A stretch of 64,000 nt of DNA, taken from contig NZ_RBXL01000001.1 of assembly GCF_003634315.1 (NCBI RefSeq), forward strand, positions 914,501 through 978,500, read 5' to 3'. Each line of letters opens with the position of its first letter. Within the stretch, counting starts at the first letter, position 1. A program made the position numbers and the translations under genes. The notes beneath the pieces were generated by a model. That model was given only the letters and a program-made list of their open reading frames with translations. It searched no databases and was not told the origin of the DNA. Shown piece after piece: positions 28 to 63,491 of this stretch. The DNA comes from Thiocapsa rosea. GTDB taxonomy: Bacteria > Pseudomonadota > Gammaproteobacteria > Chromatiales > Chromatiaceae.

Positions 28-115
28 TTAAACCGCGCCAGCTCCGACAGTCGGCGGAGCTGGCGCGGCCGAGCCATTCCAACGCATGAGGCATACCGCA
101 CGGGGCGCGGTTTAA
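28..115 (-). repeat. Intergenic TIR-bounded module, subtype A
   Basis: An 88-bp unit bounded by TTAAACCGCG and CGCGGTTTAA. One arm holds a strong hairpin (GCGCCAGCTCCG ... CGGAGCTGGCGC), followed by a conserved stretch reading GCGGTATGC on the minus strand. It belongs to the family also seen near 3.3, 8.6, 10.2, 13.7, 17.4, 21.2, 25.1, 28.7, 50.0, 58.4 and 63.4 kb. Its function is unknown. It could be a terminator-like or MITE-like element. Confidence 0.8.
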
Positions 116-262
116 GACGATTCGGGATCTTGTGACCCGCATCGGTTCCTGTATAAGCTGCCGTCGGCGGTGATCGGACCGCGGACCTCGAGGTTGCGGC
201 CCCGAACGGCCGGCAACCGAACGACTCGACGCCCCACGGATCCCGAGGAGGCCACGCACGCG

Positions 263-1858
263 ATGATGCCGGACCTGCACGACCTGGAGATTCTACTGCG
301 TTCGGACACCCCGATCGTGCTCATCGAGTCGATCGAGGAGCCGCGGGTCGTCGAGCTGTTTGCCGGCCTTGCCGTGCGTCTCGCCGAGCCGGCCTTTCGA
401 TGGTCGGTCACCGAGGGGCTGCGGCGCATCGAGCTCGATACCGAGCCGCAAAGTCGCCTGGCCGATCCGACCGAGGCGCTGCGCAATATCCGCTCCACAC
501 AGCAACGCGGCATCTATCTGCTGCTCGACTTTCATCCCTATCTCGACAACCCGCTGCACGTGCGCCTGCTCAAGGAGATCGCACAAGGCTACGCGGACCT
601 ACCCCGTACCCTGGTCTTGGTCAGTCATGCGCTCGAGGTTCCGCCCGAGCTGCACCATCTGAGCGTGCGGTTCGGCCTGCGCCTGCCTGACCGTCAGCGC
701 ATCATGGGCCTGATTCGCGAGGAGGCCAAGCGCTGGCAGGATTCCTCCGGCGGGCGCAGCTTCCGGACCGGTCGCGACGCGGTGGAGCAACTCGCCCGCA
801 ATCTACTCGGCGTCACCGAGTCCGACGCGCGCCGCCTGATCCGCAACGCCATCCGTCACGACGGCGCCATCACCCGGGAAGACGTCGAGACGGTCAAGCG
901 CGCCAAATACGATCTGCTCAGTCCCGATGGCGCCATCAGCTTCGAGTACGACACTCGATCCTTCGCCGAGGTCGCCGGTTTGGGCAACCTCAAGGCATGG
1001 ATCGACCGCCGCCGCGGTGCCTTTCTGGATCCCGCCCGCACCCGGGATCACCCGCGCGGGGTTCTGCTCTTGGGCGTTCAGGGCGGCGGCAAGAGCTTGG
1101 CCGCGAAGGCGGTTGCCGGACGTTTCGGCGTCCCGCTGCTGCGCCTGGACTTCGGTGCCCTCTACGACAAATATATCGGCGAAACCGAAAAGAACCTCCG
1201 CAAGGCATTGGCGACGGCCGATGTCATGTCGCCTTGTGTTCTGTGGATCGACGAGATCGAAAAAGGCGTCGCAACCGGCGCGGAGGACGACGGGGTCGGC
1301 CGGCGCATCCTCGGCACCCTGCTGACCTGGATGGCCGAGCGCAACACACGCGTCTTTCTCACTGCGACCGCGAACGACATCTCCCGACTCTCGCCCGAAC
1401 TCATCCGCAAAGGGCGGATCGACGAACTCTTCTTCGTGGATCTCCCCGGTGCGCCCGTGCGACACGAGATCTTTGCGATCCATCTGCGCAGGCGGGGGCT
1501 CGATCCCGAGCGCTTCGACCTCGCTCGGCTCGCCGAGGCGAGCGAGGGCTTCACCGGCGCCGGCATCGAACAGGCCGTCGTCTCCGCGCTCTACGCCGAC
1601 GAGACCGCCGGGGATGGCCTGACCACGGCCGATCTCCTGCGCGAGATCGCCGACACTCAGCCCTTGTCCGTCGTCATGCACGGCCAGCTTCAAGCGCTGC
1701 GCGCCTGGGCATCGGGCCGAACGGTTCAGGCGCACGCACCCGAAGAACAAGACGACGCGGCCGTGCTTGGACGCGACGTCGCCGCCGCGATGGCCTCGGC
1801 CCCCATGGAGCCCGCCGGGGAGGCGCTCGACGCGCAGCCCCCCGGACGCTCCGACTAA
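263..1858 (+). CDS. AAA family ATPase, Ycf46-like
   Basis: A 531-residue AAA+ ATPase. A Walker A motif (GVQGGGKS) lies at about residues 271-278 and a Walker B (VLWIDEIE) at about 326-333. These are followed by a sensor-like TATAND and the arginine-rich RKGRID segment typical of Ycf46/FtsH-type AAA modules. The first ~250 residues form the less conserved N-terminal region seen in Ycf46 proteins. No protease HExxH motif is present, so it is an ATPase without a peptidase. The start was chosen at 263 because GAGGAGG lies about 11 bases upstream. The frame is open to a GTG at 170, but that start has no good ribosome site. It stands alone upstream of the cbpA-cbpM pair. The family's cellular role is poorly defined, so substrate and partner cannot be named. 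Confidence 0.8.
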   Translation: MMPDLHDLEILLRSDTPIVLIESIEEPRVVELFAGLAVRLAEPAFRWSVTEGLRRIELDTEPQSRLADPTEALRNIRSTQQRGIYLLLDFHPYLDNPLHVRLLKEIAQGYADLPRTLVLVSHALEVPPELHHLSVRFGLRLPDRQRIMGLIREEAKRWQDSSGGRSFRTGRDAVEQLARNLLGVTESDARRLIRNAIRHDGAITREDVETVKRAKYDLLSPDGAISFEYDTRSFAEVAGLGNLKAWIDRRRGAFLDPARTRDHPRGVLLLGVQGGGKSLAAKAVAGRFGVPLLRLDFGALYDKYIGETEKNLRKALATADVMSPCVLWIDEIEKGVATGAEDDGVGRRILGTLLTWMAERNTRVFLTATANDISRLSPELIRKGRIDELFFVDLPGAPVRHEIFAIHLRRRGLDPERFDLARLAEASEGFTGAGIEQAVVSALYADETAGDGLTTADLLREIADTQPLSVVMHGQLQALRAWASGRTVQAHAPEEQDDAAVLGRDVAAAMASAPMEPAGEALDAQPPGRSD

Positions 1859-1965
1859 ACCCATTCACTCTAACGCGACCCGTGCAATGACCGTCGCCAG
1901 CCCATACCTCCCCTCACAACACGAGGTTCACGAGTTCGTGTCGGCCAAACCTTCGAGGCGCTGCG

Positions 1966-2892
1966 ATGGAATACAAGGACTACTATAAGACGTTGGGCGT
2001 GACGCGGGACGCCACCCAACCCGAAATCAAGCGGGCCTATCGAAAGCTTGCGCGCAAATTCCACCCCGACGTCAGCAAAGAGCCCGACGCCGAGGCCCGG
2101 TTCAAAGAGATCAACGAGGCCAACGAGGTCCTGCATGACCCGGAGAAGCGTGCCGCTTACGACGCGCTCGGCAGCAGCTGGCATGCCGGCCAGGATTTTC
2201 GCCCGCCGCCCGGCGGTGTTCATCACGACTTCCATTTCGGCGCCGACGAGGCCGCCGAGTTCAGCGACTTTTTTTCCAGCATCTTCGGACGCGAGTTTCA
2301 TCCCGGAGCACAGGGGCAACGCCGGCGGCGCGGTCAAGATCAGACCGCTCGGATCGCAATCGACCTGGAGGACGCCTATCGCGGGGCAACACGGCAGCTG
2401 CGCCTCGACATCCCCGAGGTCGGCCCGGACGGGCGCGTCACCTCACGCACCCGCACCCTGAACGTGCGCATCCCGCCCGGTGTCACGCAAGGTCGCCAGA
2501 TCCGCTTGGCCGGCCAGGGCGGGCCGGGGATCAACGGCGGTCATGCCGGCGATCTCTACTTGGAGATCGATATCAATCCGCACCGTTTCTTTACAACGGA
2601 CGGCAAGGACATCCATCTACGCCTGCCCATCGCACCCTGGGAGGCGGCACTCGGTGCGTCCGTCTCGGTCCCCACACTCGGCGGAACAGTGAACCTTAAG
2701 GTCCCGCCGGGATCTCAGTCCGGGCAACGCCTGCGCTTGAAGGGGCGGGGGCTGCCCGGCGAGCCGGCCGGGGACGCGATGATCATGCTCGAGATCGTTA
2801 CCCCGCCCGCAACCACGGATGCCGCCAAGGCAGCCTATCGCGACATGGCCGAGCGTCTACACTTCAACCCAAGGGCCGAGATGGGAGTCTGA
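1966..2892 (+). CDS. cbpA: Curved-DNA-binding protein / DnaJ-class co-chaperone CbpA
   Basis: A 308-residue Hsp40 co-chaperone. The N-terminal J domain carries the HPD motif at residues 33-35, which stimulates DnaK ATPase. A Gly/Phe/His-rich linker follows (about 75-105), then two C-terminal beta-sandwich substrate-binding domains. There is no zinc-finger (CxxCxGxG) region, which separates CbpA from DnaJ. The length fits the family (about 305). It lies 3 bases upstream of cbpM, the known antagonist of CbpA, and this pairing supports the name. In other bacteria CbpA also binds curved DNA and is cytoplasmic or nucleoid-associated; that is family knowledge, not visible here. Confidence 0.93.
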   Translation: MEYKDYYKTLGVTRDATQPEIKRAYRKLARKFHPDVSKEPDAEARFKEINEANEVLHDPEKRAAYDALGSSWHAGQDFRPPPGGVHHDFHFGADEAAEFSDFFSSIFGREFHPGAQGQRRRRGQDQTARIAIDLEDAYRGATRQLRLDIPEVGPDGRVTSRTRTLNVRIPPGVTQGRQIRLAGQGGPGINGGHAGDLYLEIDINPHRFFTTDGKDIHLRLPIAPWEAALGASVSVPTLGGTVNLKVPPGSQSGQRLRLKGRGLPGEPAGDAMIMLEIVTPPATTDAAKAAYRDMAERLHFNPRAEMGV

Positions 2893-2895
2893 CGC

Positions 2896-3240
2896 ATGAC
2901 GCAGACCGAGACACGCATTGAAGGGATCGTGCTCGACGAGGGGCTGACGGTCACCCTCACCGAACTGACCCAGCTCTGCGGCTCCAGCGGCCGCGTGGTG
3001 AGGCTGATGGTGACCGAAGGGCTCCTGCACCCAGAGGGTCAAGCCCCGGACGATTGGCGGTTCGACGGCTTCGAGGTACGTCGAGCACGTCGCGCCGTGC
3101 GCCTGCAGCGCGACCTCGACCTCAACCTCCCCGGCACCGCACTCGCGCTCGATCTGCTCGATGAGCTGGAGCGACTGCGCGATCGATTACGCGCGCTTGA
3201 GCACCAACTCGGACAACGGCGCACGCGCGAGCTCGGTTAA
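2896..3240 (+). CDS. cbpM: Chaperone modulator CbpM
   Basis: A 114-residue protein of the MerR-like CbpM family, which binds the J domain of CbpA and inhibits it. The first ~70 residues show the winged-helix pattern (LTELTQLCGSSGRVVRLMV...EGLL). The last ~45 residues form an amphipathic, Leu/Arg-rich helix. It starts 3 bases after the cbpA stop and is surely cotranscribed. The TAA stop (3238-3240) lies in the left edge (TTAAACCGCG) of the repeat composite that fills the gap to nadC, so the element sets the end of the protein. Confidence 0.9.
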   Translation: MTQTETRIEGIVLDEGLTVTLTELTQLCGSSGRVVRLMVTEGLLHPEGQAPDDWRFDGFEVRRARRAVRLQRDLDLNLPGTALALDLLDELERLRDRLRALEHQLGQRRTRELG

Positions 3241-3430
3241 ACCGCGCCCGGCGCGACATGCCATGTCTTTGGATGGGATCAGCTCCGGCAGACTTGACGA
3301 GCGCTGGATCGAGCGCGGTTTAAGATATTAAAAGATATATCATTTTAAACCGCGTCTCACCGAGGTCGAGGACATCTCCGAAGCCAAACGCAAAACGAAA
3401 ACGACGCATGTCGCTCTGGACGCGGTTTAA
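3237..3430. repeat. Composite of two intergenic modules (B + AT linker + C)
   Basis: Module B spans 3237-3323 and module C spans 3345-3430, each bounded by TTAAACCGCG/CGCGGTTTAA. They are joined by an AT-rich linker at about 3324-3344 (GATATTAAAAGATATATCAT). The facing arms of the two modules plus the linker could form a stem-loop. The composite fills the whole gap between the convergent genes cbpM and nadC and supplies the TAA stop codon of both. Confidence 0.85.
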
Positions 3431-4317
3431 CCCATGAAGCGCATCGAGAGATCGACTGCGGTCACGTCCTTCGTCAGCGCGCCAACCGAAATGCGGTCGA
3501 CGCCGGTTTCCGCGATGGCCCGAATGGTCGCAAGACCCACACCGCCCGATGCCTCCAGCCTGGCGCGCCCCGCGCTCATGGCGACCGCCAAACGCAAGTC
3601 CCCGAGCGCGAAGTTATCGAGAAGGACCGACTCCGCCCCGCCGTCCAAGGCGGTCCGCAGCTCGTCGAGACTCTCCACCTCGATCTGAATCTCAACGCCG
3701 GCACCGGCCGCTTCGGCCGCGGCGGAGAGCGCGGCCGGGATCGAGCCCGCAGCGAGGATGTGGTTTTCCTTGATGAGGATCGCGTCGAACAGACCCATGC
3801 GGTGGTTGTGGCAGCCCCCGCAGAGGACCGCATATTTCTGTTGGACGCGCAGACCGGGCAACGTCTTGCGGGTGTCCAACACCGCGACGGGGAGACCGGC
3901 GACCGCGGCGGCAAACTCAGCCGCGCGGGTCGCTGTCCCTGAAAGGGTCTGAAGGTAATTCATGGCCGTGCGCTCGCCGGTCAGCAGACCGGCCGACGGA
4001 CCTTCGATCAGCGCCAGACGCTGACCCGGGTGGATCCGATCGCCGTCGGCGACCTCCCAACGGACGGCGATCTCCGGATCAAGCAGCCTAAACACCGTCT
4101 CGAACCAGGCGCATCCACAGATGACCGCGGGCTCGCGCGTGATCAGCTCGGCGCGGGCGCGCTGATCGCGCGGCACCAAAGCCGCGGTGAGGTCGCCGGC
4201 ACCGACATCCTCCTCGAGCGCCGCTCGGACTTGGGCCTCGATGAGACGCGGGTCCGGAAGGCGCACCGGACGCACCGCCGGGCGCAAGGGATTCATCTCT
4301 TGGGTTGTTTCAGCCAT
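3427..4317 (-). CDS. nadC: Nicotinate-nucleotide diphosphorylase (carboxylating)
   Basis: Quinolinate phosphoribosyltransferase, 296 residues. It converts quinolinate and PRPP to nicotinate mononucleotide, CO2 and PPi in de novo NAD synthesis (cytoplasmic). Family signatures are [11 protein letters not shown] near the N terminus, the [11 protein letters not shown] loop, [10 protein letters not shown] and the C-terminal ASGGV and [11 protein letters not shown] segments that shape the phosphate site. The start at 4317 overlaps the upstream DUF1631 gene by 8 bases. A second Met six codons in (4299) is an alternative. The stop codon lies in the edge of the module C repeat. Placement after the DUF1631 gene suggests an operon. 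Confidence 0.95.
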
Positions 4318-6517: not shown

Positions 6518-6700
6518 GTGAATCTCGACGCCGATTGCCGGTCATGTCACCATCATGGCCCGAGGTACGGGGCGGCCGGCAAACCTCGAGGAACCGATGG
6601 AATATGTTGCCGCGATGGTAAGCAATGCAATGAACGGTGTCACCTTCGATCGGCGGGCTCTCGGCCGACTGCCCCCCTCTGCCCGCCCGCGCTGCGCCTG

Positions 6701-7426: not shown

Positions 7427-7466
7427 CCGGCTCGATCAGCCGCAGAATGACCCGGCGACCACCCCG

Positions 7467-8279: not shown

Positions 8280-8505
8280 CGTATCGCCGGCCTCGAGCTA
8301 TCAACGTCGGGATATCATCTCCGCGCGCGATTGCCGGGATATTGACGAACCGTGAAGATGCGATGAAATCTCGGGGCAGCGCGCAATGCCGACTCAACCG
8401 GGGCCATCCACCCGGGCGTGCCGACCCGAGCAACCGATCGCCCCGGAAAGCACCGGGCAATCCCCTAGTGGAGCAGTGCAGAGATTCGGAGACCGTTCGA
8501 GATCA

Positions 8506-8541
<36 letters not shown>

Positions 8542-8591
8542 GATTCCGAACGAAACGATCCTTCCTTGCACATCCGCTCAGCCGGAAGCAG

Positions 8592-8686
8592 CGTCGGAGC
8601 TGGCGCGGCCAAGCCATTCCAACACATGACGCATACCGCACCTGGCGCGGTTTAGAAACATCGCATACCGCCCCGGGCGCGGTTTA
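8592..8686. repeat. Fragments of intergenic modules A and B
   Basis: Positions 8592-8655 match the distal two-thirds of module A, with the first terminal arm missing. Positions 8657-8686 match only the last 30 bases of module B (ACATCGCATACCG...GGGCGCGGTTTA). The outer edge of the second fragment supplies the TAA stop of the minus-strand gene ending at 8684. Confidence 0.75.
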
Positions 8687-9850
8687 GTCCGCGCCCCAAT
8701 GCGGGGTGCCGATCGCGTCGCCGAGATCGGCGGCGACGAGCAGACGCCTGATCTCGAGCAGACGCTCGATGAGCGCCGGCTCGCACGCCGCGTAGGCGTC
8801 ACGATCGGGAACGCGCTTGACCACGACACCGAGCAGCTCCGTGATGGCATTGCCGATCGAGTTCTGACTGATGGTCAACATCAGCCGGCCGGAGTCATGC
8901 CGAAAGATAAGCTGCTTGAAGGCCGGCTCCCAGCGGATGGAGCTGGCGTAGGCCGGGTCGCCGAGGCAGCGCTCGCGAACCCGCTTGGCGGTCTGCATGA
9001 AGGCGTTGTCGAAGAGCAGGACCGATTCGATCTGATCGGGAAAGTAGACGTCCGACAGGATCTCGGCATTGCGGCTCGACACCTGCGAGAAGAAGGTGCG
9101 GTAGAAGTCGAGAAACCCGCGCAGGATCTCGTCGTACTCCGCCCAGAAGACGGTGTCGCCGAGGGCCGCGACCCCGCCTTGGATCTCCCAGCAGGGCAAA
9201 CCCTCCGGATAGCCGGTGAGCGCGAGGCGCGACTCGTCCGTATGCACCGTTCGCAGGATGCGCAGGTCCAGCGCCTCGTCGAAAAAGCGACGGTAGACAT
9301 CGCGCATGTGGGCCTGAAAGAGGCTGTGCTGGCCGCCGTCGGTCAGATTGGGGTGGCTCGGATCGGCCGGCGGGGCAGCGCGTAGCTGCTCGGTGGGGAA
9401 GACGATAAAGTGGTTGTGCAGCATGCGGATGCTCGGCACGCCCGGCGAGGTCAGCGGCCAGGTGGCATCCAGGCTTGCCTCGCCGGCCATCACCAGTGCC
9501 TCGCCCGGATCCGGATAGCGTCCGAGCATCTCCTCGATGATGATCCGATTCATCCGGTTCCAGACGCGCTTCACCGACGGCGAGACCTGGGTGCGGCGCA
9601 CCGGACGGCCGAGCGGATTGAGGATGCGTTTGGAGGTGTCGTAGATGATCGAGCAATCCAGCTCGGTGGAATGCCCCAGCGCCTTACGGTAAAGCAGCAG
9701 ATCTTCTTGGTTGCGCAGCAGGCCGTTGTTCTGCACCAAATCCCGAAGGTTCTCGGCGCTGTTGAAGAACTCGTTCGGCGTCAGACCCGCCGGAACCTCC
9801 AACGGGATGGGCCGAAATGGGGTGATGATCTCGCGTGGACCCGATGTCAT
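8684..9850 (-). CDS. Conserved protein of unknown function (388 aa)
   Basis: I do not recognise this gene. The 388-residue protein has no signal peptide or membrane segment. Notable stretches are LRDLVQNNGLLRNQEDLLLYRKALGHS near the N terminus, a central MLHNHFIVFP that recalls but does not match a HIT motif, and a C-terminal LEIRRLLVAADLGDAIG. Many conserved-looking aromatic and acidic residues suggest a soluble enzyme or sensor. The start at 9850 follows the stop of the small Cys-rich gene by 4 bases, so the two form a unit. The frame remains open upstream to 9967, but that overlaps the small gene in another frame. Its TAA lies in a module fragment. Confidence 0.7.
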   Translation of the reverse strand: MTSGPREIITPFRPIPLEVPAGLTPNEFFNSAENLRDLVQNNGLLRNQEDLLLYRKALGHSTELDCSIIYDTSKRILNPLGRPVRRTQVSPSVKRVWNRMNRIIIEEMLGRYPDPGEALVMAGEASLDATWPLTSPGVPSIRMLHNHFIVFPTEQLRAAPPADPSHPNLTDGGQHSLFQAHMRDVYRRFFDEALDLRILRTVHTDESRLALTGYPEGLPCWEIQGGVAALGDTVFWAEYDEILRGFLDFYRTFFSQVSSRNAEILSDVYFPDQIESVLLFDNAFMQTAKRVRERCLGDPAYASSIRWEPAFKQLIFRHDSGRLMLTISQNSIGNAITELLGVVVKRVPDRDAYAACEPALIERLLEIRRLLVAADLGDAIGTPHWGAD

Positions 9851-9854
9851 GACG

Positions 9855-10073
9855 CTATGACTGCTCCCGCTCCGAGCAATGCCCGTCGCGAAGACGCCGG
9901 GCATAGTCCAGGCGCATGGGACATGTCTCCCAATCGCCCTGGGCGCATTCCGTCTTGCGGCAATCAAATTCGCAACAGGAGACCTCGTCCGGCACCCGAG
10001 CGACCCATCGACGGGAAAGCGACGATCCGATACGGCGCAGAAAGCCCGGCTTCTTCTCGGACGCCTCGTTCAT
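9855..10073 (-). CDS. Small cysteine-rich protein
   Basis: A 72-residue basic protein from the Met at 10073, which has GAGGG about 8 bases upstream. It has a CCEFDCRKTEC...CPMRL cluster (six Cys in about 45 residues with the later C) that could bind metal or a cofactor. It is not a recognised family to me. It ends 4 bases before the 388-residue gene on the same strand, which suggests cotranscription and a joint role. Coding status is supported by this spacing and by the ribosome site, not by homology. Confidence 0.55.
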   Translation of the reverse strand: MNEASEKKPGFLRRIGSSLSRRWVARVPDEVSCCEFDCRKTECAQGDWETCPMRLDYARRLRDGHCSEREQS

Positions 10074-10174
10074 TTCGGCCCTCGAACAGAGAGATCTGGT
10101 GTTGCCCGACGCAGCGCCGTCACAGGCGCGGGCAGTCATCCGGGTCCATCCGCTCGCGGTCGGTCCGTCCGAGC

Positions 10175-10367
10175 TTAAACCGCGCCCGGTGCGGTATGCG
10201 TCATGTGTTGGACTGGCTTGGCCGCGCCAGCTCCGACGACTGTCGGAGCTGGCGCGGTTTAAAGTATTAAAAATTTAAATTTTAAACCGCGTGTCGCTGA
10301 GATCAAGGAAGTCTCAGACGCTAAACACAACATGAAAATCACGCATTTCGCTCAGGACGCGGTTTAA
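10175..10367. repeat. Composite of two intergenic modules (A + AT linker + C)
   Basis: Module A spans 10175-10262, with a near-perfect hairpin CGCCAGCTCCGA/TCGGAGCTGGCG. The AT linker at about 10263-10281 reads AGTATTAAAAATTTAAATT. Module C spans 10282-10367. The arrangement equals that at 3237-3430 but with A in place of B. It occupies the middle of the 10074-10579 gap. I see nothing else in that gap. Confidence 0.85.
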
Positions 10368-12041: not shown

Positions 12042-13651
12042 TGAACCTCGACGATCTGGCCGATCTGGCCGAGCAATACCGCGCCATCGACGCGAACGTC
12101 GAGCGCGAGGTCCGCGTCTGCATGGCCGCCAGTTGCCAGTCATCCGGCGCCGCGCCCGTCTTGGACGCACTCGTCGCCGGTCTCGGGGAGAGTCAACCCG
12201 CGTGCAAGGTCAAAGGGGTTGGATGTATGGGGCTCTGCTCGGCCGGCCCCTTGGTATCGATCGCTCACAGGGACGGCTCGCTCGAAGAGTCGACGATCTA
12301 TCGCGACGTCACCGCGGATGACGCCGCCGACATCATCGCAAGCCTCGACGGCCCTCCCGTGGAGCGTCTGCGCTGCCCGACGGATCAGCCCTTCTTCGCG
12401 CGCCAGCAGAAGATCGTGCTGGAGAATGCCGGCATCATCGATCCGGACAGCTTCAAGGGCTATGTGGCCGTCGGCGGTTACTCCGCGCTGATCCGGGCCT
12501 TGAGCGAGATGACCCCGGCCGACGTGCTGCGCGAAGTGACCGACAGCGGTCTGCGCGGACGCGGCGGCGGCGGCTACCCGACGGGCCTGAAATGGTCGAC
12601 CGTCGCCAAGATGCCCGCAACCCAGAAGTACGTCATCTGCAACGCGGACGAGGGCGACCCGGGTGCCTTTATGGATCGAGCGATCCTGGAGTCGGACCCG
12701 CATCGCGTGATCGAGGGCATGGCCATCGCCGCCTACGCGATCGGGGCGAACAAGGCTTATGTCTATGTCCGCGCCGAGTACCCGCTCGCGGTCGAGCGAC
12801 TCCAGACCGCCATTCGCAAAGCCAAACGCTCGGGCTTCCTGGGCAACAAGATCGGCGACACCCAGTTCAGCCTGGAGGTCGAGATCCGGCTCGGCGCCGG
12901 GGCCTTCGTCTGCGGCGAGGAAACGGCACTGATGGCCTCGATCGAGGGTCTACGGGGCCAACCACGCCCGCGTCCACCCTACCCCGCCGAGTCGGGACTC
13001 TGGGGCTACCCCACGCTCATCAACAACGTCGAGACCTTCGCCAACATCGCCCCGATCGTGCGCGAGGGGGGCGAGTGGTTCGCCTCGATCGGCACCGAGC
13101 GATCAAAAGGGACGAAGGTCTTCGCACTCGCCGGGACCATCACCAACACCGGCCTCATCGAAGTCCCGATGGGCACCTCGCTGCGCGACATCATCGAGGT
13201 CATCGGTGGCGGCATCCCGGGCGGCAAGGCATTCAAGGCGGTGCAGACCGGCGGACCCTCGGGCGGTTGTATCCCGGCGCAGCACCTCGACATTGCCGTG
13301 GATTACGACAGTCTCAAGACACTCGGAACCATGATGGGTTCGGGCGGCATGATCGTGATGGACGAGACCTCCAGCATGGTCGATGTCGCGCGCTATTTCA
13401 TGGAGTTCTGCATGACCGAGTCGTGCGGAAAGTGCGTCCCGTGCCGCACCGGCACGCAGCAGATGCACAGCATCCTGGACCGGCTCGCCAAATCGCAGGC
13501 CAGCCGGGCCGAGCTAGCCCTTTTGGAAGAGCTCTGCGAGGTGGTGCAGGCCACCAGTCTCTGCGGACTGGGGCAGACGGCGCCGAATCCGGTGTTGAGC
13601 ACCATGCGGTATTTCCGCGACGAGTACGAAGCAAAGCTCGGCGACGCTTAA
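12041..13651 (+). CDS. hoxF: NAD-reducing hydrogenase diaphorase large subunit HoxF
   Basis: A 536-residue NuoF-like subunit. From N to C: a thioredoxin-like [2Fe-2S] domain (CMAASC and CMGLC), the FMN/NAD Rossmann region ([40 protein letters not shown]) and a [4Fe-4S] domain ([12 protein letters not shown] with a later Cys in SLCGLGQ). It oxidises or reduces NAD(H) for the hydrogenase. It starts one base inside the hoxE stop. Its own TAA (13649-13651) is part of the edge of a module A repeat that separates it from hoxU, which is unusual inside a hox operon. Confidence 0.95.
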
Positions 13652-13735
13652 ACCGCACCGGCTCCGACACTGATCGGAGCCGGTGCGGCCGAGCCAAATC
13701 CAACGAACGACGCATACCGCGCCGGGCGCGGTGTA
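13648..13735 (-). repeat. Intergenic module A inside the hox operon
   Basis: A diverged 88-bp module A copy (CACCGGCTCCGA/TCGGAGCCGGTG hairpin; right edge GCGCGGTGTA). It starts on the hoxF stop codon and ends about 100 bases before hoxU. The remaining sequence up to 13833 carries the hoxU ribosome site GGAG and nothing else that I recognise. A strong hairpin here could attenuate transcription or stabilise the upstream mRNA. Confidence 0.75.
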
Positions 13736-13833
13736 GATGCCGCCGGAAGCGAATATCTGCAGCGACGGACCTTGCGTTGTTTCCTGCGCGCCTTTGCGGT
13801 TCAAACTGCACGAACGAGGTTGACGGAGCCGAT

Positions 13834-15104: not shown

Positions 15105-15108
15105 ACCC

Positions 15109-16877: not shown

Positions 16878-17417
16878 ATGGATCGCACAAGCATGGGAGG
16901 CAGGAAGATCTTGATCATCGGCTACGGCAGCCCGATCCGCGGCGATGACGCGATTGGGCCGCTGGTCGCGGATCGGCTACAGGCCGAGGGCATGCCGGAA
17001 GGCGTGGAGGTGATCTCGCGCCACATCCTCACAGCCGAACTGGTCGCCGATTTGGTGGAGCACGACCGCGTCGTCTTTCTCGACGCCGCGGTCGACGGCG
17101 CACCGGGCGAGGTGCGCTGCCGGTCGCTCGCCCCCGACGCCAGCGCCATGTCGACCATGGCGCATTTTCTGGATCCACGCGAGCTGCTCGCCTGGTGCGA
17201 GACACTCTACGACAAGGTCCCCGAGACCTTCCTGGTCTCGGCGTGCGGGACCTCCTTCGACTATTCCAATTACGTGCTGACGCCGACCGCCGAAGCGGCG
17301 ATCGAGCCGATGCTGGATTGGGTGCGGCGCCTGATCGACCCGAGCGAGCCTCTCGCATCGGATCAGCTGCCGGGCGCATCGCCGCGCGAGACAGAAACGC
17401 CGCTTCGGATTCCCTAA
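16878..17417 (+). CDS. hoxW: Hydrogenase maturation protease HoxW
   Basis: A 179-residue peptidase of the HyaD/HybD/HoxW family (M52). The IGYGSPIRGDDAIGP motif holds the first Ni-binding acidic residue. The second acidic site (DAAVDGAPGE) and the His in STMAHFLDP follow. It removes the HoxH C-terminal extension after Ni insertion. The ATG directly follows the hoxH TGA. The TAA stop (17415-17417) is the left edge of a module A repeat. The last ~30 residues are poorly conserved. Confidence 0.92.
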   Translation: MDRTSMGGRKILIIGYGSPIRGDDAIGPLVADRLQAEGMPEGVEVISRHILTAELVADLVEHDRVVFLDAAVDGAPGEVRCRSLAPDASAMSTMAHFLDPRELLAWCETLYDKVPETFLVSACGTSFDYSNYVLTPTAEAAIEPMLDWVRRLIDPSEPLASDQLPGASPRETETPLRIP

Positions 17418-20178: not shown

Positions 20179-21150
20179 ATGAGCAAGCTCGACCAACTCA
20201 AGACCATGACCACGGTCGTCGCCGACACCGGCGATTTCGAGTCCATCGCCGAGTATCAGCCCCAAGATGCCACCACCAACCCGTCCCTGATCTTCAAAGC
20301 GGCCCAGATGCCGCAGTACCGCGAACTGGTGGAGGACGCCGTTCTCTTCGGCACCCGCGAGGGCGGCAGCGACCCGATGGGCCAAGCCCGGGCAGCCATG
20401 GACAAGCTCGCCGTGAACTTCGGCACGGAGATCCTGAAGATTGTTCCCGGACGGGTCTCGACCGAGATCGATGCGCGGCTCTCCTTCAACACCGAGGCGA
20501 CGCTTAAGCGCGCCGCGGCACTGGTGGAGCTGTACCAAGCCGTCGGCATCGACCCGAGCACCCGAGTCCTCTTCAAGATCGCCTCGACCTGGGAAGGCAT
20601 CCGAGCCGCCGAGATCCTGCAGCGCCAAGGGCTGCACTGCAATTTGACCCTCTTGTTCAGCTTCGCCCAAGCCGTCGCCTGCGCCGACGCGGGCGTCACA
20701 CTCATCTCGCCCTTCGTCGGACGTATCCTCGACTGGTACAAGAACACCGACAACGTCTCCGGCTACCCGGCCGACGAGGATCCGGGTGTGCAGTCCGTCA
20801 CCCGCATCTACAACTACTACAAACGCCACGGCTACGACACCGTCGTCATGGGCGCGAGCTTCCGCAATCTCGACGAGATCCTGGAGCTGGCCGGCTGCGA
20901 CTACCTCACCATCTCGCCCGCCCTGCTCGGCGAGCTTGCTTCGACCGAAGGCGATGTTCCGCGCAAACTCGACCCCGAAGGGGCGCTCGACATGGAGATC
21001 CCGAAGGTCGGGTTCGACGAGCCCGGCTTCCGCTGGGAACTCAACGAAGACGCCATGGCCTCCGAAAAACTCGCCGAGGGTATCCGACTCTTCGCCGCCG
21101 ATACGCGTAAACTCGAGCAGTTCGCCCACGAGGTCTGCCACAACTGCTAA
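20179..21150 (+). CDS. tal: Transaldolase
   Basis: A 323-residue class I transaldolase of the TalB type. It transfers a dihydroxyacetone unit between sedoheptulose-7-phosphate and glyceraldehyde-3-phosphate in the pentose phosphate pathway. Signatures are DATTNPSLI near the N terminus, the Schiff-base Lys in [11 protein letters not shown], and [11 protein letters not shown] and [10 protein letters not shown]. The length matches the family (about 317). GAAGGTG upstream serves as ribosome site. The TAA stop is the first part of a truncated module repeat. Confidence 0.96.
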
Positions 21151-21199
21151 AACGCGCCCGGTGCGGTATGCGTCGTTTGTTGGAGCTGGCGCGGTTTAA
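21148..21199 (+). repeat. Internally deleted intergenic module A
   Basis: A 52-bp copy that keeps the left arm (TAAAACGCGCCC), the GCGGTATGCGTC core and the right arm (GCTGGCGCGGTTTAA) but lacks the middle hairpin half. It begins on the tal stop codon. Confidence 0.75.
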
Positions 21200-21212: not shown

Positions 21213-21305
<93 letters not shown>

Positions 21306-21435: not shown

Positions 21436-21548
21436 TGGTTTAAATGAAAAAAAATACTCTCTTAAACTGCGTCGGCTCCGACGGCCGTGGATTGATCGGA
21501 GGCCGAATCGAGGCGCAACCAATCCATATCAGGCCGGACGCAGTTTAA
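21436..21548. repeat. Diverged module pair before ksgA
   Basis: A short module end (up to about 21443), an AT linker (ATGAAAAAAAATACTCTC) and a full diverged module at 21462-21548 (TTAAACTGCG ... CGCAGTTTAA). Its last A is the first base of the ksgA ATG. It has no module C/A/B core and may be a further subtype. Confidence 0.65.
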
Positions 21549-24833: not shown

Positions 24834-25072
24834 AAACCGCGTCCAGCGCGGTTCTCGAGCGCGTCGCGTTGACTGCGAACTTGCGGGCCGTCGGGCCGGC
24901 TGAAGAGGACGACTGCAAGTCGTCTATCCCGGGGGGTTCGCCGCTTCGCGACGACCGTAGGCGGCACTGCCGGACGATCCTCTGCGCAATTGGGATGTTG
25001 ATTTCCGGAGATCGCCTTAATGTTGCCTTTGGCTTCGGAGATATCCTCGATCTCAACGAGACGCGGTTTAAA
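24834..25072 (-). repeat. Module C interrupted by another repeat
   Basis: Read on the minus strand, 25072 down to about 25021 matches the first ~50 bases of module C (TTAAACCGCGTCTC...GATATCTCCGAAGCC). Positions 24834-24856 match its other end (TAAACCGCGTCCAG). Intact C modules are 86 bp, while here the ends are 239 bp apart, so about 150 bp of foreign sequence, including the GACGACTGCAAGTCGTC unit, appears to have entered it. Confidence 0.6.
24900..24960. repeat. Palindromic repeat unit (GACGACT-GCA-AGTCGTC)
   Basis: The core GACGACTGCAAGTCGTC with the downstream CTATCCCGGGGG and TCGCCGCTTCGCG is nearly identical to 51672-51735. It is a second repeat family with two copies in this window. 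Confidence 0.8.
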
Positions 25073-25092: not shown

Positions 25093-25179
25093 TTAAACCG
25101 CGCCAACTCCAACGGTCGTGACGTCTGCCGGGGCCGATCCCATCCAAAAACATCGCATATCACTCCGGGCGCGGTTTAA
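25093..25179 (-). repeat. Intergenic module B
   Basis: An 87-bp module B in reverse orientation, separated from the preceding module C end by an AT linker (about 25073-25092). Its right edge GCGGTTTAA supplies the TAA of rmlD. Confidence 0.85.
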
Positions 25180-28631: not shown

Positions 28632-28824
28632 TTAAACCGCGCCCCGCGCGGCATGCGATGTTTTTGGACGGGATCGGCCCCGGCAGACTTAACGACCGTT
28701 GGAGCCGGCGCGGTTTAAGAATTTAAAAAATTGATTATTCTAAACCGCGTCCCCGCCAAGGGCCGTCGATGCACAAAAGGTCGAGCTCACTCAAAATCAG
28801 CATCTCGCTCTGGACGCGGTTTAA
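28632..28824. repeat. Composite of two intergenic modules (B + AT linker + C)
   Basis: Module B spans 28632-28718, the linker GAATTTAAAAAATTGATTATT follows, and module C spans about 28741-28824. It lies between ssb and rmlB, both on the minus strand. Its outer edge supplies the ssb TAA. Same structure as 3237-3430. Confidence 0.85.
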
Positions 28825-50017: not shown

Positions 50018-50103
50018 TTAAACCGCGCCGGCCCAACGGTCGCCAAGGCTGCCGGGACCAATCCCATCCAAAAACATCGCATACCGATCTGAGCGCGGTT
50101 TAA
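50018..50103 (-). repeat. Intergenic module B
   Basis: An 86-bp module B in reverse orientation, preceded by an AT-rich stretch (TCTATATTTTTTAGTATC). Its right edge GCGGTTTAA supplies the TAA for the original frame of the hsdR relic. Confidence 0.8.
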
Positions 50104-51652: not shown

Positions 51653-51671
51653 ACCCTCGGCAGTTGTCGGG

Positions 51672-51735
51672 GCGGCGGAAGGGGACGACTGCAAGTCGTC
51701 TATCCCGGGGGTGTCGCCGCTTCGCGGCGATGGCG
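51672..51735. repeat. Palindromic repeat unit (GACGACT-GCA-AGTCGTC), copy 2
   Basis: Same core and flank as at 24900-24960 (GACGACTGCAAGTCGTC, CTATCCCGGGGG, TCGCCGCTTCGCGGCGA). It directly follows the long direct repeat copy. Confidence 0.8.
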
Positions 51736-55640: not shown

Positions 55641-55715
55641 CCTTCTCGTCTGAGCGCTCGCGACCGACGGCTCCGCGCCGCGACGCAACCGCCCCCGCCA
55701 CAGTGAATCCATGCC

Positions 55716-58352
<2,637 letters not shown>

Positions 58353-58355
<3 letters not shown>

Positions 58356-58437
58356 ACCGCGCCCGGGGCGGTATGCGATGTTTTTGGATGGGATCGGCCC
58401 CGGCAGACTTGACGGCCGCTGGAGCCGGCGCGGTTTA
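58353..58437 (+). repeat. Intergenic module B after metH
   Basis: An 85-bp module B with edges TAAACCGCGCC and GGCGCGGTTTA. It supplies the metH TAA and lies between metH and the convergent coiled-coil gene. It is followed by an AT stretch (GGATTTTAAAAAACATA) but no module C. Confidence 0.85.
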
Positions 58438-58467
58438 GGATTTTAAAAAACATATCCGGGAATCGCC

Positions 58468-58854: not shown

Positions 58855-58908
58855 AGCGGGCTCCGCTGGATCGCGCGCGGTCGGGATTATATAACGAGCT
58901 ACAGCGGA

Positions 58909-61113
58909 TCAACCCCCTGTCGAGATCCCCATCCCGGCCCGTATACAGCTTAAGAGTCCATAGTTGTAGCGGCCTTCGAAGGCGTCGTAGATCGGCTTGA
59001 GGCTGATAAGCGCGCCCTCGGGCTGTTGCTCGATGGCGAATTCGATGGCCCGTAGACTGTCTCGGTCGAGGGTAACGACCTCGCCGACCGAAAGCTCGCC
59101 GACCTCGATGCAGCGCGACAGGTGCGTATAGATGGTGCTGGCCTTGAGCTCACGGCGATCGGCAATTGCATCCACCGAGAGTCCAGAACGCAGCAGCGCC
59201 AGGGTCTCTCGCACCGAGTCGTTCAGCTCGATCGCACCGGCGCGGGCCTCGCTCGCCGCCGCTCGGGCGGCCGGCAGGACCGGCACCCGTTCGGGTCGGC
59301 CGTGCTCGGCTTCATGCAGGGCGAGCAGCCGTAGGAAGCCCTCGCCGAAGCGCTCGAGCTTCACCTGACCGACACCGTTGATCCGAGACAGCTCGTCGCG
59401 ATCGCGCGGGCGGTAGGTCAGCATCTCGTTGAGCGTGACATCGTTGAAGATGTGGTACGCCGGCACATCCTGCTCCACGGCGAGCTGACGCCGGTAGTCG
59501 CGCAGGGCCTGCCAGAGCGCGAGCGCCTCCGGATCGGTCGGCGGCGCCATGGCGGGGCGACGTGCGGCGGAGCTCGTGCGTTTGCGGTCCGGATCCCGGC
59601 GCAGGTGCAGCGTTCGCTCGCCCCGCAGCAAGGGACGGCTCTGCTCGGTCAGGCAGAGCGCCCCGTGCCCCTCGAAATCGACCCTGATGAAGCCGGCTGC
59701 GACGAGCTGACGATAGACGGACTTCCATTGATCCGCGGAGAGCTCCTGGCCGATGCCGAAGGTCGTGACTTGGTCATGTCCGAAGCGGCGGATGCGCTCG
59801 TTTGCCTTGCCGAGCAGGACGTCCACCAGATAACTGCTGCCGAAGCGCTGGCCCGTGCGATAGATGCAGGAGAGCGCCATCTGCGCCGCCCGAGTCCCGT
59901 CCCAGGTGGCGACCGGCTCCAGGCAGGTGTCGCAGTTGCCGCAGGGCTTGGGAAGCGGCTCGCCGAAATAGTTGAGCAGAACCTGGCGCCGACATTCGGT
60001 GGTCTCGCAGAAGCCGAGCATGCTGTCGAGCTTCTGCATCTCCACCCGCTTGAAGCGCTCCTCGGCCTCGGAGTCCTCGATCATGCGACGCAGCATCACC
60101 ACGTCGCCCAGACCATAGGTCATCCAGGCATCGGCGGGCTGACCGTCCCGGCCGCCGCGTCCGGTCTCCTGGTAGTAGGCTTCCAGGCTTTTGGGCAGGT
60201 CCAGATGGGCGACGAAGCGCACGTCCGGCTTGTCGATCCCCATCCCGAAGGCGATGGTCGCGACGATGATCACGCCCTCCTCGCGCAGGAACCGGGCTTG
60301 GTGCGTGCGGCGGGTCTCGGCCGGAAGCCCTGCGTGATAGGGCAGCGCCGCGATGCCCTGGGTCGCGAGATAGGTCGCCGTCTCCTCGACCTTGCGCCGC
60401 GACAGACAATAGACGATGCCGGCATCGCCGGGATGCTCGTTGCGCAGGAAGGCGATGAGCTGCTGACGCGGGTTGGCCTTCTCGACGATGCGATAGCGGA
60501 TGTTCGGTCGATCGAAGCTGGACACGAACTGCCCGGCCTGCTCCAAACCCAAGCGGGTCAGGATCTCGGCTCGGGTCGGCGCGTCGGCGGTCGCGGTGAG
60601 TGCGACGCGCGGGATCTGGGGCCAGCGCTCGTGCAGCAGGTGGAGCTGGATGTATTCGGGGCGGAAATCATGGCCCCATTGGGAGACGCAGTGGGCCTCG
60701 TCGATCGCGAACAAGGCAACCCGGACGCGATCCAACAGCGCGAGGAAACGCTCGGTCAGCAGCCGCTCCGGAGCGACATAGACCAGGTCCAGATCGCCCG
60801 AGATCATCGCCTCCTCGACCGTGCGGGCCTCCTGCAGCGTCAGCGATGAGTTCAGAAAGGCGGCCCGCACGCCGAGCTGCCGCAGTGCATCGACCTGGTC
60901 CTGCATCAAGGCGATCAACGGCGAAACCACGACCCCCACGCCGGGGCGCAGGATCGCCGGAATCTGATAACAGAGCGACTTGCCCCCACCCGTCGGCATG
61001 AGGACCAGGGCGTCTCCGCCGGCGATCAGCCGATCGATAATCTCCGCCTGCGCACCGCGAAAACGGTCGTAGCCGAAGACGCGGTTGAGCACCTGAAGCG
61101 GCGTCTCGTTCAT
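58909..61113 (-). CDS. recQ: ATP-dependent DNA helicase RecQ
   Basis: A 734-residue 3'-5' helicase. Motif [19 protein letters not shown] box [18 protein letters not shown] and motif [12 protein letters not shown] are followed by the RQC zinc ligands ([12 protein letters not shown] ... CGNCDTC), a winged helix and an HRDC domain ([23 protein letters not shown]). The extra C-terminal ~100 residues look like a helicase-associated HTH domain found in longer RecQ proteins. Start at 61113 gives MNETPLQVL. Divergent from ppx. Confidence 0.96.
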
Positions 61114-61290
61114 CCTGTCACTCCACGGAATCGCAACCGCATCGGTTGCGATGCACATTTTAACCTATTCGTGTACGATGGGCGCTCTGCACGCATGCGT
61201 GCGGCCACATCGAGCAGCATCAACGCACGTCACCCGCGACGGAGTCGGCTTCTGGTACCATTTACGCGCCGCTCAGCGTTGGACCCTGCC

Positions 61291-62814
61291 ATGATTGAAG
61301 AGCCCGTCCAGGACGCCGTCGAGACCATGCTGCCAGAGGTCGTCGCAGCCGTCGATCTCGGATCCAATAGCTTTCACATGATCGTCGCCCGCATCGGCAA
61401 CGGTCACATGCAGGTGACCGATCGCCTCAAGGAGATGGTCCGACTCGGCGAAGGCGTGGGCGAGGACAAGCAGCTCGACGCGCAGGTCGCCGAGCGCGCC
61501 TTGGCGTGCCTGGAGCGATTCGGCCAGAGGCTCCGTGGCTTCCCTCCCGGCAGCGTGCGTGCGGTCGGAACCAATACCTTGCGCCAGCTCGCGCCCGACA
61601 GCGATTTTCTCCCCCGGGCGGAAGCCAAGCTCGGTCACCCGATCGAGGTCATCGCGGGCCGCGAAGAGGCGCGGCTGATCTACCTCGGCGTCGCCCACGA
61701 TCTAGCCGCAGGCACCGAGCGCCGCCTCGTCGTCGACATCGGCGGCGGCAGCACGGAGATCATCGTCGGGCTCGGTTTTTCTCCGCGCCTGCGCGAGAGC
61801 CTGCACATGGGCTGCGTGAGCATGTCGCGCCGTCATTTCGCCGACGGGCGCATCACCGCCCGGGCCATGGAAAAGGCCGAGCTTACGGGAGCGCTCGAGG
61901 TGCGGCCCGTACGCGAGCTGTTTCGCCGCACGGGCTGGCAAACGGCCGTGGGCAGCTCCGGCACCATCAAATCCATCGCAGCTGTCGTGGCGGCCGAAGG
62001 CTGGTGCGAGGACGGGATCTCGGCGACGGCGCTGCTGCGACTTCGCGATGCGCTCGTGGAGACGGGCCGAATCTCCGCCCTCGCGCTCAAGGGCTTGGCC
62101 GAGGAGCGTAAGCCGGTCTTCGCCGGCGGTGTCGCCGTCCTGCGATCGGTCTTCGAGACGCTCGGGATCCAACATCTGCAGGTCTCGGAATACGCACTGC
62201 GTGAAGGCTTGATCTACGAAACGATGGGGCGCAGCCAACACGTGGACGTCCGGGAACGCACCGTCGAGACCCTCGGCCGACACTTTCAGATCGATCAGGA
62301 CCACGCCCAGCGCGTCCGGGCGACGGCCGTGGCCCTCTTGCGCCGACTCGCCGGGCCTTGGTCGCTGCAGGACCCCAACCACAGGCTCATGCTCGCGTGG
62401 GCGGCACGACTCCACGAAATCGGCGTCATGGTCGCCCACAGCCAGCACCAGAAACACGGGGCCTATTTGCTGCGCAACGCCGATCTCGCCGGCTTCACGC
62501 GACCGGAGCAAATGCTGCTCGCCGTCTTGGTGCTCGGACACAGAAGGAAGTTTCCCGTCCAAGAGCTCGCGGTCCTACCCCGCGAGACCGGGGAGGCGGC
62601 GCGCAGGCTCTGCATGATCCTGCGGCTGGCCGTTCTGCTGCATCGCGGTCGCTCCTCGGAAAGCAAACCCAATCCGACGCTCACGACCGACGGGGACAAC
62701 CTCGCCTTGAGCTTCCCGGACGATTGGCTCGCCGATCACCCCTTGACCCGGTTGGAGCTTGAAGAGGAGGCCGAGCGCCTGGCTTCCGCGGGGATTCGCC
62801 TGGAATTCGGATGA
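61291..62814 (+). CDS. ppx: Exopolyphosphatase
   Basis: A 507-residue Ppx/GppA phosphatase. The actin-like fold has VAAVDLGSNSFHMIVARI near the N terminus, RAVGTNTLRQ, VVDIGGGSTEIIVG and GSSGTIKSI. The C-terminal ~200 residues are the HD-like domain (LAWAARLHEIG, YLLRNADLAGFTRPEQ). It releases phosphate from long-chain polyphosphate; GppA activity on pppGpp cannot be excluded. Start chosen at 61291. Confidence 0.93.
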   Translation: MIEEPVQDAVETMLPEVVAAVDLGSNSFHMIVARIGNGHMQVTDRLKEMVRLGEGVGEDKQLDAQVAERALACLERFGQRLRGFPPGSVRAVGTNTLRQLAPDSDFLPRAEAKLGHPIEVIAGREEARLIYLGVAHDLAAGTERRLVVDIGGGSTEIIVGLGFSPRLRESLHMGCVSMSRRHFADGRITARAMEKAELTGALEVRPVRELFRRTGWQTAVGSSGTIKSIAAVVAAEGWCEDGISATALLRLRDALVETGRISALALKGLAEERKPVFAGGVAVLRSVFETLGIQHLQVSEYALREGLIYETMGRSQHVDVRERTVETLGRHFQIDQDHAQRVRATAVALLRRLAGPWSLQDPNHRLMLAWAARLHEIGVMVAHSQHQKHGAYLLRNADLAGFTRPEQMLLAVLVLGHRRKFPVQELAVLPRETGEAARRLCMILRLAVLLHRGRSSESKPNPTLTTDGDNLALSFPDDWLADHPLTRLELEEEAERLASAGIRLEFG

Positions 62815-62983
62815 GCCTGTCGGGTCCGCCCGGATGGAACCACCTGCTCGCCCGTATCCTTTTCCCCTCATCCTGGTAAAATTACAAGTGAACCTGGGTT
62901 CGCCACCGCAGACCCCGGAACGGAATTTTCCCGCCGCCGCGGTATCGCGCGCGGTTTCAACGCCGCTAAACTGGAGGACAACA

Positions 62984-63403
62984 ATGGCCGCACTTTTTTC
63001 AGCAGACTGGATGAACCATCTTAAGGACGCTTGGAACGGTGAGCCGGAGGTCACGGACAAGCTGGCCGAGATCGACTTCAACTCGGTGATCTATTGTGGA
63101 TTCAAAGACGAAGAGAATCCGCGCGGCGTCTTCGTCGTCGAAAAGGGCGTCTGCGTGCGGGCCGGCGCTTGGTCGGAGACGGATCCGCCCGCCAACTGGG
63201 ACATGCGCGCGGACCTCAAGGATTGGCTCAAGTGGGTCGAGAAGGGCATCGGTATGGCCGGCATGGGCACCGCCTTCATGACCGGCAAGCTCAAGTTCAA
63301 GGAAGGTGACTACAAGGCGATGCTGAAGGACCCGCGCATGGCCAATCCCTTCGTGAAGAGCTTCGGGCTCATGCAGCAGATTCCGACGGACGAACTCGGC
63401 TGA
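62984..63403 (+). CDS. SCP2 sterol-binding domain protein
   Basis: A 139-residue soluble lipid-binding-fold protein. It keeps the pattern VIYCGFKDEENPRGVFVVEKGVC, WDMRADLKDWLKWVEKG and FMTGKLKFKEGDYKAMLKDP, typical of SCP2 domains. GGAGGACAACA is the ribosome site. The ligand is unknown. Many methylotrophs and purple bacteria carry such genes singly. Confidence 0.8.
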   Translation: MAALFSADWMNHLKDAWNGEPEVTDKLAEIDFNSVIYCGFKDEENPRGVFVVEKGVCVRAGAWSETDPPANWDMRADLKDWLKWVEKGIGMAGMGTAFMTGKLKFKEGDYKAMLKDPRMANPFVKSFGLMQQIPTDELG

Positions 63404-63410
63404 ACCTGAA

Positions 63411-63491
63411 CCGCGCCGGCAGTAACATCAATCGTTTCGAGGTGACTGCGAGGTCACCTCGGACAACCGACTCGGCGGGACGCGGTTCAGG
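63411..63491. repeat. Diverged intergenic module
   Basis: Edges TGAACCGCGCC and GGGACGCGGTTCA with a different interior (GAGGTGACTGCGAGGTCACCTC hairpin). A remote family member about 8 bases after the SCP2 gene stop. Confidence 0.6.

What the first reader, a model, noticed from the sequence alone, without database searches (positions are those of the whole stretch)
28..63491. Family of ~87-bp intergenic modules that supply stop codons
At least 15 full or partial copies are seen, bounded by TTAAACCGCG...CGCGGTTTAA. In ten genes (cbpM, nadC, the gene at 8684, hoxF, hoxW, tal, rmlD, ssb, the hsdR relic, metH) the TAA stop lies in the module edge, and ksgA starts on the last A of one. This could reflect target preference for TTAA/TAA, which in GC-rich DNA is found mainly at stop codons, and would make the family a non-autonomous mobile element. 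It could also be a selected bidirectional terminator/mRNA-stabilising element, since several copies hold perfect 12-13-bp hairpins.
Basis: partly seen in the sequence, partly recalled or inferred. Interest (0 to 1): 0.82.

Follow-up and report, generated by a model that had tools for sequence, protein, structure and literature searches.

The report
Mobile 85-bp palindromes supplying stop codons
Hundreds of short mobile DNA pieces in a purple sulfur bacterium often sit exactly on the stop signals of ordinary genes and replace them with their own, and the matching ends of these pieces stay largely intact while their middles mutate.

Summary
The window has 14 full and about 6 partial copies; the genome (a Thiocapsa) has 588 exact-ended ones, reversed control 0. 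A module is mostly 84-86 bp between TA...TA, bounded by TRAACCGCG / CGCGGTTYA. Many form a 193-bp pair: one A/B and one C/D module in fixed relative orientation around an AT-rich linker (82 of 83 pairs with both halves classified).

Empty sites in a congener show modules in Y-TA-R with the TA doubled (7 of 12; 4 show CA/TG). Where relatives lack the module, their stop is at the same codon (14 of 16 clean genes in G139, 10 of 12 in G023): the element's end turns the TA of a stop into TAA, keeping protein length. In 924 kb, 66 of 138 facing gene ends use a module's stop. Sites just past the stop look equally filled, so stops are hit mainly because YTAR is there.

Ends are conserved about three- to sevenfold better than interiors and, in Thiocapsa, vary in matched pairs. 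A terminator role is not supported. No autonomous partner was found. I read it as a TA-duplicating MITE of the ERIC/RUP/NEMIS kind with constrained ends and a heterodimeric form.

The parts
28..115 (-). full module, single, A subfamily, internal hairpin
8592..8687 (-). truncated A copy and a short B fragment; supplies stop of ORF 8684..9967
10175..10262 (+). left (A) half of a pair
10282..10367 (-). right (C) half of a pair
13648..13736 (-). full module, A subfamily; supplies stop of the ORF ending at 13651 (hoxF); empty site in G071 is CTAG at the same codon
17414..17501 (+). full module with C..G outer bases; supplies stop of the ORF ending at 17417 (hoxW)
21147..21199 (+). deletion derivative; supplies stop of the ORF ending at 21150 (tal)
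21462..21548 (.). divergent module with matched end change ACTGCG/CGCAGT; ATG of the ORF at 21548 (ksgA) overlaps its last A
25017..25071 (+). truncated C half of a pair
25093..25179 (-). B half of a pair; supplies stop of the reverse ORF ending at 25176 (rmlD)
28632..28718 (+). B half of a pair also present in G023 and G071; only this half in G139
28740..28824 (-). D half of the same pair; supplies stop of the reverse ORF ending at 28821 (ssb)
50018..50103 (-). single B module; supplies stop of the reverse ORF ending at 50100
58352..58438 (+). single B module with C..G outer bases; supplies stop of the ORF ending at 58355 (metH)
63407..63489 (.). old-type module with TGA..TCA ends; a look-alike (by eye) is in G023 at C1:2115131

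Best explanation
A family of non-autonomous, MITE-like elements moved in trans by an unidentified transposase. Shown: it occupies a TA inside Y-TA-R and doubles the TA, both as an 85-bp module and as a 193-bp heterodimer. Shown: because its ends read TA|AACCGCG, insertion into the TA of a TAA or TAG stop gives TAA at the same codon, so protein length does not change; copies pile up at gene 3' ends, where YTAR sites are mostly stop codons. Shown: the ends are conserved about three- to sevenfold better than the interior, also in copies shared between species; in Thiocapsa the two ends vary in matched pairs. Inferred: harm elsewhere removes other insertions, and the paired ends of resident copies are kept because they act as a hairpin or cruciform at gene boundaries (3'-end protection, transcript boundary or DNA structure site).
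For: Copy numbers 588, 474, 275, 213 and 121 in five Thiocapsa genomes and 0 in a sixth; 18 of 146 family genomes have any. Of 12 near-clean empty sites in G139 (gap 8 bp or less, read by eye) 7 show one TA, for example CTCC|TAG|CGG against CC TA[AACC..GGTT]TA G CGG; 4 show CA/TG, 1 neither. Outer bases Y..R in 94 of 97 exact copies. Native stop at the same codon in relatives lacking the module: 19 of 21 (G139) and 14 of 16 (G023) with the stricter filter; after dropping decayed modules by eye 14 of 16 and 10 of 12. Interior-defined copies: 178 of 260 have both 9-bp ends exact; end divergence 2.4, 2.2, 3.5 and 6.3% at interior divergence 6.3, 11.7, 17.1 and 22.0%. Orthologous copies, own to G139: ends 2.7% and 4.7% against interior 13.8% and 19.1% (TAA and TGA classes). 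Five Thiocapsa genomes: TGA..TCA 295, mixed 60. Pair composition and orientation fixed in 82 of 83 fully classified pairs of 104.
Against: No autonomous element with these ends was found: 7 DDE_3, 9 Y1_Tnp and 21 DDE_Tnp_1 loci of this genome, plus end scans over the fetched stretches. A role of the ends in RNA is not supported. Between orthologs single arm changes (34) far outnumber matched double changes (3). In four other genera matched TGA..TCA copies (1, 0, 4, 0) are fewer than mixed ones (8, 2, 11, 1), so the matched variation is a Thiocapsa feature only. Four of 12 empty sites have CA/TG where TA is expected, and TGA is the relative's stop more often than the background suggests.
Confidence: 0.62

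Rival explanations
1. Purely selfish MITE: ends match because each transposase lineage needs matched ends; conservation of ends reflects recent activity, with no host role.
For: TA-doubled empty sites and strong copy-number differences between congeners; recent A-D subfamilies; outside Thiocapsa no matched end variation.
Against: Ends are conserved in copies shared between species, including TGA..TCA copies: 4.7% against 19.1% (own to G139), 0 of 54 against 27.7% (own to G023), 3.1% against 18.7% (G139 to G023) (modules were chosen on intact ends in one species, which could halve the apparent end rate). In-place matched double changes at own 294353, own 417952 and G139 570998 of the joined string.
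Confidence: 0.27
2. Bidirectional transcription terminator or mRNA 3' stabiliser under selection at RNA level.
For: 33 clusters against 97 convergent gaps, 72 against 382 tandem, 13 against 106 divergent; stable internal hairpins in A copies; conserved end pairing in Thiocapsa.
Against: Exit side has 23% T over 12 nt in 71 cases, no control run; mismatched ends in tandem contexts are as often A.C as G.U on the sense strand, 21 vs 17 (includes three false modules inside genes); a convergent bias is expected from stop-codon targets alone.
Confidence: 0.2
3. Ends are kept perfect by a mutational process: template switching in the quasi-palindrome rewrites one arm from the other; no selection.
For: Matched changes occur with no strand bias.
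Against: It would make arms match each other but not keep the same TRA and GCG letters across copies with unrelated interiors; mostly single changes are seen between orthologs.
Confidence: 0.12

Closest known systems
ERIC / IRU / RU-1 (enterobacteria)
   Same: Short non-autonomous repeats with terminal inverted repeats, TA at ends and TA duplication, intergenic, some at gene 3' ends (passages of PMC2229807, PMC2759123, PMC10969869).
   Different: 127 bp against 85/193 bp; an RU-1 insertion at a 3' end removed the normal stop and extended the ORF (passage of PMC2759123), whereas here the stop is renewed at the same codon; heterodimer with AT linker.
RUP of Streptococcus pneumoniae
   Same: 107 bp, TIRs, target containing TA (passages of PMC2229807).
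   Different: RUP ends resemble those of a resident IS630-Spn1 (same passages); no such partner found here.
REPINs with RAYT
   Same: Inverted doublets with conserved ends, less conserved spacer of set length and compensatory changes (passages of PMC3116915).
   Different: Ends are TRAACCGCG, TA is doubled, and the nine Y1 transposase loci of this genome are not bounded by modules.
Correia / NEMIS (Neisseria)
   Same: TIR-bounded repeats of about 107 and 155 bp with TA at termini (passages of PMC2229807).
   Different: Length, pairing rule and host group differ; the end sequences were not compared here.

Membership tests
TA-duplicating bacterial MITEs (class) | Many short copies with terminal inverted repeats | tested here: met
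   588 copies, reversed control 0
TA-duplicating bacterial MITEs (class) | Insertion with TA duplication, shown by empty sites | tested here: met
   7 of 12 near-clean empty sites in G139 show one TA; 4 show CA/TG, 1 neither
TA-duplicating bacterial MITEs (class) | Ends shared with a resident IS (known for RUP only, as far as the passages say) | tested here: inconclusive
   37 transposase loci of three Pfam families are not bounded by the ends, but the whole genome was not scanned for long elements with these ends
TA-duplicating bacterial MITEs (class) | No protein coding | not tested
   interior ORFs not analysed
ERIC | 127-bp unit | tested here: not met
   133 of 157 modules are 84-86 bp; pairs about 193 bp
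REPIN / REP-RAYT | REP sequences flank the RAYT gene | tested here: not met
   of 9 Y1_Tnp loci one (L139) has a complete module in its 1.5-kb flank, on one side only
REPIN / REP-RAYT | GTAG or CGTC tag (title of PMC3733652, listing only) | tested here: not met
   module ends are TRAACCGCG
Integron attC sites | Site inside the cassette array next to intI | tested here: not met
   intI found at C1:4066779; no module end (up to 1 mismatch) in the small-ORF region beside it, nearest pairs outside
Integron attC sites | RYYYAAC...GTTRRRY core sites (recalled) | tested here: not met
   module ends read YTRAAC...GTTYAR
Intrinsic terminator | U-rich tract after the hairpin | tested here: not met
   23% T in 12 nt on the exit side, n=71 single modules
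Rfam families | Match above gathering score | tested here: not met
   0 matches in the window

The most novel reading that the evidence does not exclude
The modules have become a genome-wide set of host gene-end markers: a mobile piece that brings its own stop codon and a folded DNA (cruciform) boundary, whose paired ends are selected at each site while the middle drifts, and whose recombinase accepts TGA stops as well and rewrites them to TAA on insertion.
Probability: 0.14. Interest if true: 0.85.

Novelty: new variant of a known kind. Interest (0 to 1): 0.6.

Why it matters
It is a worked case of how a mobile element can fill a GC-rich genome at little cost: near gene ends the target letters are mostly stop codons, and the element renews them. 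About 30% of the TAA stops called in 924 kb (55 of 186) are supplied by it. Ends conserved at copies shared between species make the old question of whether bacterial interspersed palindromes are junk or function testable by orthologous comparison. Stop-codon usage and 3' regions of these genomes are shaped by the element.

Tried and rejected
TTAA duplication: rejected, since CTAA..TTAG copies and CTAG empty sites fit TA doubling. Preference for stop codons as such: rejected, filled and empty YTAR sites are in about the same proportion 0-20 bp downstream. IS630, Y1 and DDE_Tnp_1 partners: none encloses its transposase between these ends as element ends. In one search five of 21 loci had facing end-like 9-mers (up to 1 mismatch); checked, the one pair that encloses a transposase ORF (L317) is a 1.9-kb IS sitting inside a module, and its two sister copies (L324, L325) have no such flanks. 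Of the facing lone ends, all three spans (L168 and two in L253) hold ORFs that look ordinary by eye; of those, one span was printed and one (4.6 kb) was not inspected. attC sites: rejected. RNA-level pairing by G.U bias: no support. Interior length constraint: indel/substitution ratio 0.046 against 0.084 in other noncoding DNA (own to G139), but 0.082 against 0.095 and 0.077 against 0.090 with G023, so weak. Three module calls lie inside genes and are false; they stay in the sets used, and the double change that one of them (own 634198) gave is not counted. Papers: nothing on this family in searches (listings only; the library lacks most subscription journals).
Full report
WHAT IS THERE. The window lies at C1:914501-978500 of a 6.11-Mb genome. 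A congener, G071, has a contig of 5,069,971 bases, the length of the Thiocapsa sp. KS1 contig, so I take the genus to be Thiocapsa. The window holds 14 full modules and about six partial ones (by eye). The pattern TTAAACCGCG N60-75 CGCGGTTTAA is found 282 times in the genome and TAAACCGCG N54-80 CGCGGTTTA 588 times, with 0 for the reversed pattern.

ANATOMY. I studied 924 kb of this genome (C1:1-860000 and the window), 840 kb of G139 and 838 kb of G023. Between the outer TA dinucleotides 133 of 157 copies in the 860 kb are 84-86 bp long. Subfamilies A and B share one interior type; C and D are two further clusters; 33 of 169 copies were alone. Clusters in 924 kb: 71 single, 49 paired, 1 triple. 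The four sequences together hold 104 pairs, orthologs counted more than once: in 83 both halves could be classified, and 82 of these consist of one A or B and one C or D module in one fixed relative orientation (BD 46, AC 18, BC 13, AD 5), one is D with C; 18 have no classified half and 3 have one. I read each pair with the A/B half first, so order is a convention but composition and orientation are not. The linker is 87% A+T and 23 bp long in 58 of 84.

INSERTION. 55 of 121 clusters could be anchored on both flanks in G139. Of 12 near-clean empty sites (gap of 8 bp or less, read by eye) 7 show a single TA, such as CTCC TAG CGG against CC TA[AACC...GGTT]TA G CGG, four of them for whole pairs; four show CA or TG at that place and one neither. 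Outer bases in 97 exact copies: T..A 51, C..G 22, C..A 11, T..G 10, other 3. Hence Y-TA-R with TA doubled. At two sites (window 3237; own 776454) two species carry different subfamilies between the same flanks: at window 3237 this genome has a B-C pair, G139 a single D-like copy, G102 and G023 a single A copy, and G071 none, with stop TAG at the same codon.

STOP CODONS. With a home-made gene caller (826 genes; genes covered more than 30% by modules dropped), 138 gene 3' sides face a cluster. In 66 the stop codon is the module's terminal TAA (55) or TGA (11); one more overlaps an edge, by 19 bp; 31 lie outside the tabulated range. 62 of 122 clusters have at least one such edge. Relatives: of 68 genes with a module-edge stop, one search gives the relative's stop at the same codon in 22 of 24 without a module (G139), 15 of 17 (G023), 4 of 5 (G071), 1 of 2 (G102), 1 of 2 (G123) and 1 of 1 (G033); 21 (G139) and 13 (G023) have a module there, the rest did not align, were frameshifted or had no hit. 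With a stricter module filter the figures are 19 of 21 and 14 of 16. Several rows still hold decayed modules (for example TAA GCCGCG, TGA AACGCG); dropping these by eye leaves 14 of 16 in G139 and 10 of 12 in G023. Stops inside the aligned stretch were not looked for. Compared with all free noncoding YTAR sites, stops are over-represented (102 of 731 sites against 62 of 122 clusters). But near gene ends they are not: empty YTAR sites in 860 kb number 105 at stops, 36 within 20 bp after and 37 at 20-50 bp, and modules at these distances (924 kb) number 66, 23 and 13. The preference is for gene 3' ends, and there stops are hit because that is where YTAR is.

A HINT THAT DOES NOT FIT. At the clean same-codon sites the relative's stop is TGA in 6 of 14 (G139) and 6 of 10 (G023), by my count (one further G023 row with TGA was dropped because G139 holds a decayed module there). 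For module-free genes with TAA or TAG in this genome, TGA in the relative is 9 of 59 (G139) and 4 of 24 (G023), counting rows that have a stop. Either stops switched before insertion more than usual, or TGA can be a target and is rewritten to TAA. The numbers are small and no formal test was run.

ENDS UNDER CONSTRAINT. Copies found by interior alone (n=260) have both 9-bp ends exact in 178; end divergence is 2.4, 2.2, 3.5 and 6.3% at mean interior divergence 6.3, 11.7, 17.1 and 22.0% (126, 94, 33 and 7 copies; the seven copies that had lost an end are left out of the end figure, and ends were placed at best fit within a few bases). Orthologous copies (9-bp ends): own to G139 (42 modules, 1 skipped), ends 14/522 (2.7%) against interior 236/1705 (13.8%) for TAA-type and 11/234 against 146/764 for TGA-type; own to G023 (15, 3 skipped), 6/216 against 115/708 and 0/54 against 49/177; G139 to G023 (22, 5 skipped), 6/234 against 139/768 and 5/162 against 100/536. 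Modules were chosen on intact ends in one species, which by itself could halve the apparent end rate, not cut it to a quarter.

MATCHED CHANGES. An unbiased scan for 10-bp inverted repeats of any sequence is enriched at outer lengths of about 82-89 bp and lists further module-like ends (TGAATCGCG, TAAACTGCG, TGAAACGCG, TAAGCCGCG and others) with TRA outside and GCG inside (recognised by eye). In five Thiocapsa genomes TAA..TTA number 1671, TGA..TCA 295 and mixed 60 (gap ranges differ slightly). Outside the genus this does not hold: G033, G132, G018 and G142 have TGA..TCA 1, 0, 4, 0 and mixed 8, 2, 11, 1. Between orthologs there are 3 matched double changes (own 294353, own 417952, G139 570998 of the joined string) and 34 single ones; a fourth double change lies in a false module inside a gene. 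By a hand estimate well under one matched double change would be expected from the single rate.

WHAT THE ENDS MAY DO. Not an ordinary terminator: 23% T in the 12 nt past single modules entered from a stop codon (n=71, no control run). Not clearly RNA: in tandem contexts mismatched arm positions are G.U 17, A.C 21 and other 31. Of 14 folds of 12 window modules, z-scores run from -1.0 to -6.5, strongest in A copies. A DNA hairpin or cruciform, or a protein site with paired arms, is left open.

MOVER. Seven DDE_3, nine Y1_Tnp and 21 DDE_Tnp_1 loci were checked; none has its transposase enclosed by these ends as the ends of the element; in L317 an IS has landed inside a module. Facing lone ends in about 0.9 Mb of other loci and the fetched relatives enclose ordinary-looking ORFs. 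An integron integrase exists (C1:4066779, 425.6 bits), but the small-ORF array beside it has no modules.

KNOWN KINDS. TA-ended, TA-duplicating small repeats are known as ERIC, RUP and NEMIS (passages of PMC2229807, PMC2759123, PMC10969869), and conserved ends with variable spacers and compensatory changes as REPINs (passages of PMC3116915). SPRITE repeats near 3' ends were proposed as co-opted terminators (passages of PMC3049150). IS630 preference for CTAG is recalled, not looked up. No paper on this Thiocapsa family appeared in the listings of searches. I file it as a new variant of the TA-duplicating MITE kind.

Noticed in passing
8503-8541 and 21213-21305: Hexamer runs (TCGTTG)n in opposite orientation near modules; similar runs occur elsewhere in the genome, one right after a lone module end (own C1:469045).
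   Followed up: no
24890-24954 and 51666-51730: A second repeat of 65 bp, 91% alike, with a GACGACTGCAAGTCGTC palindrome; a piece of it also appears beside the integron region (L332:8908).
   Followed up: no
G000:C1:752787-754199 and 763706-765118: Two ORFs with the same translation that look like a group II intron reverse transcriptase (by eye, no family search).
   Followed up: no
L331/L332, G000:C1:4066779-4075200: Chromosomal integron integrase with an array of small ORFs, a 300-bp piece of which is repeated at 98% identity; the array is free of modules.
   Followed up: partly
L317:1253-3382 (G000:C1 near 4825361): A 1.9-kb IS with a 608-aa transposase ORF has inserted inside one module of a pair.
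   Followed up: partly
clean empty sites in G139 and G023: Relatives' native stop is TGA more often than background at sites where this genome has a module TAA.
   Followed up: partly
G123 (same genus, 4.7 Mb): A congener with no exact-ended modules and one mixed-end copy; useful as an empty reference.
   Followed up: partly
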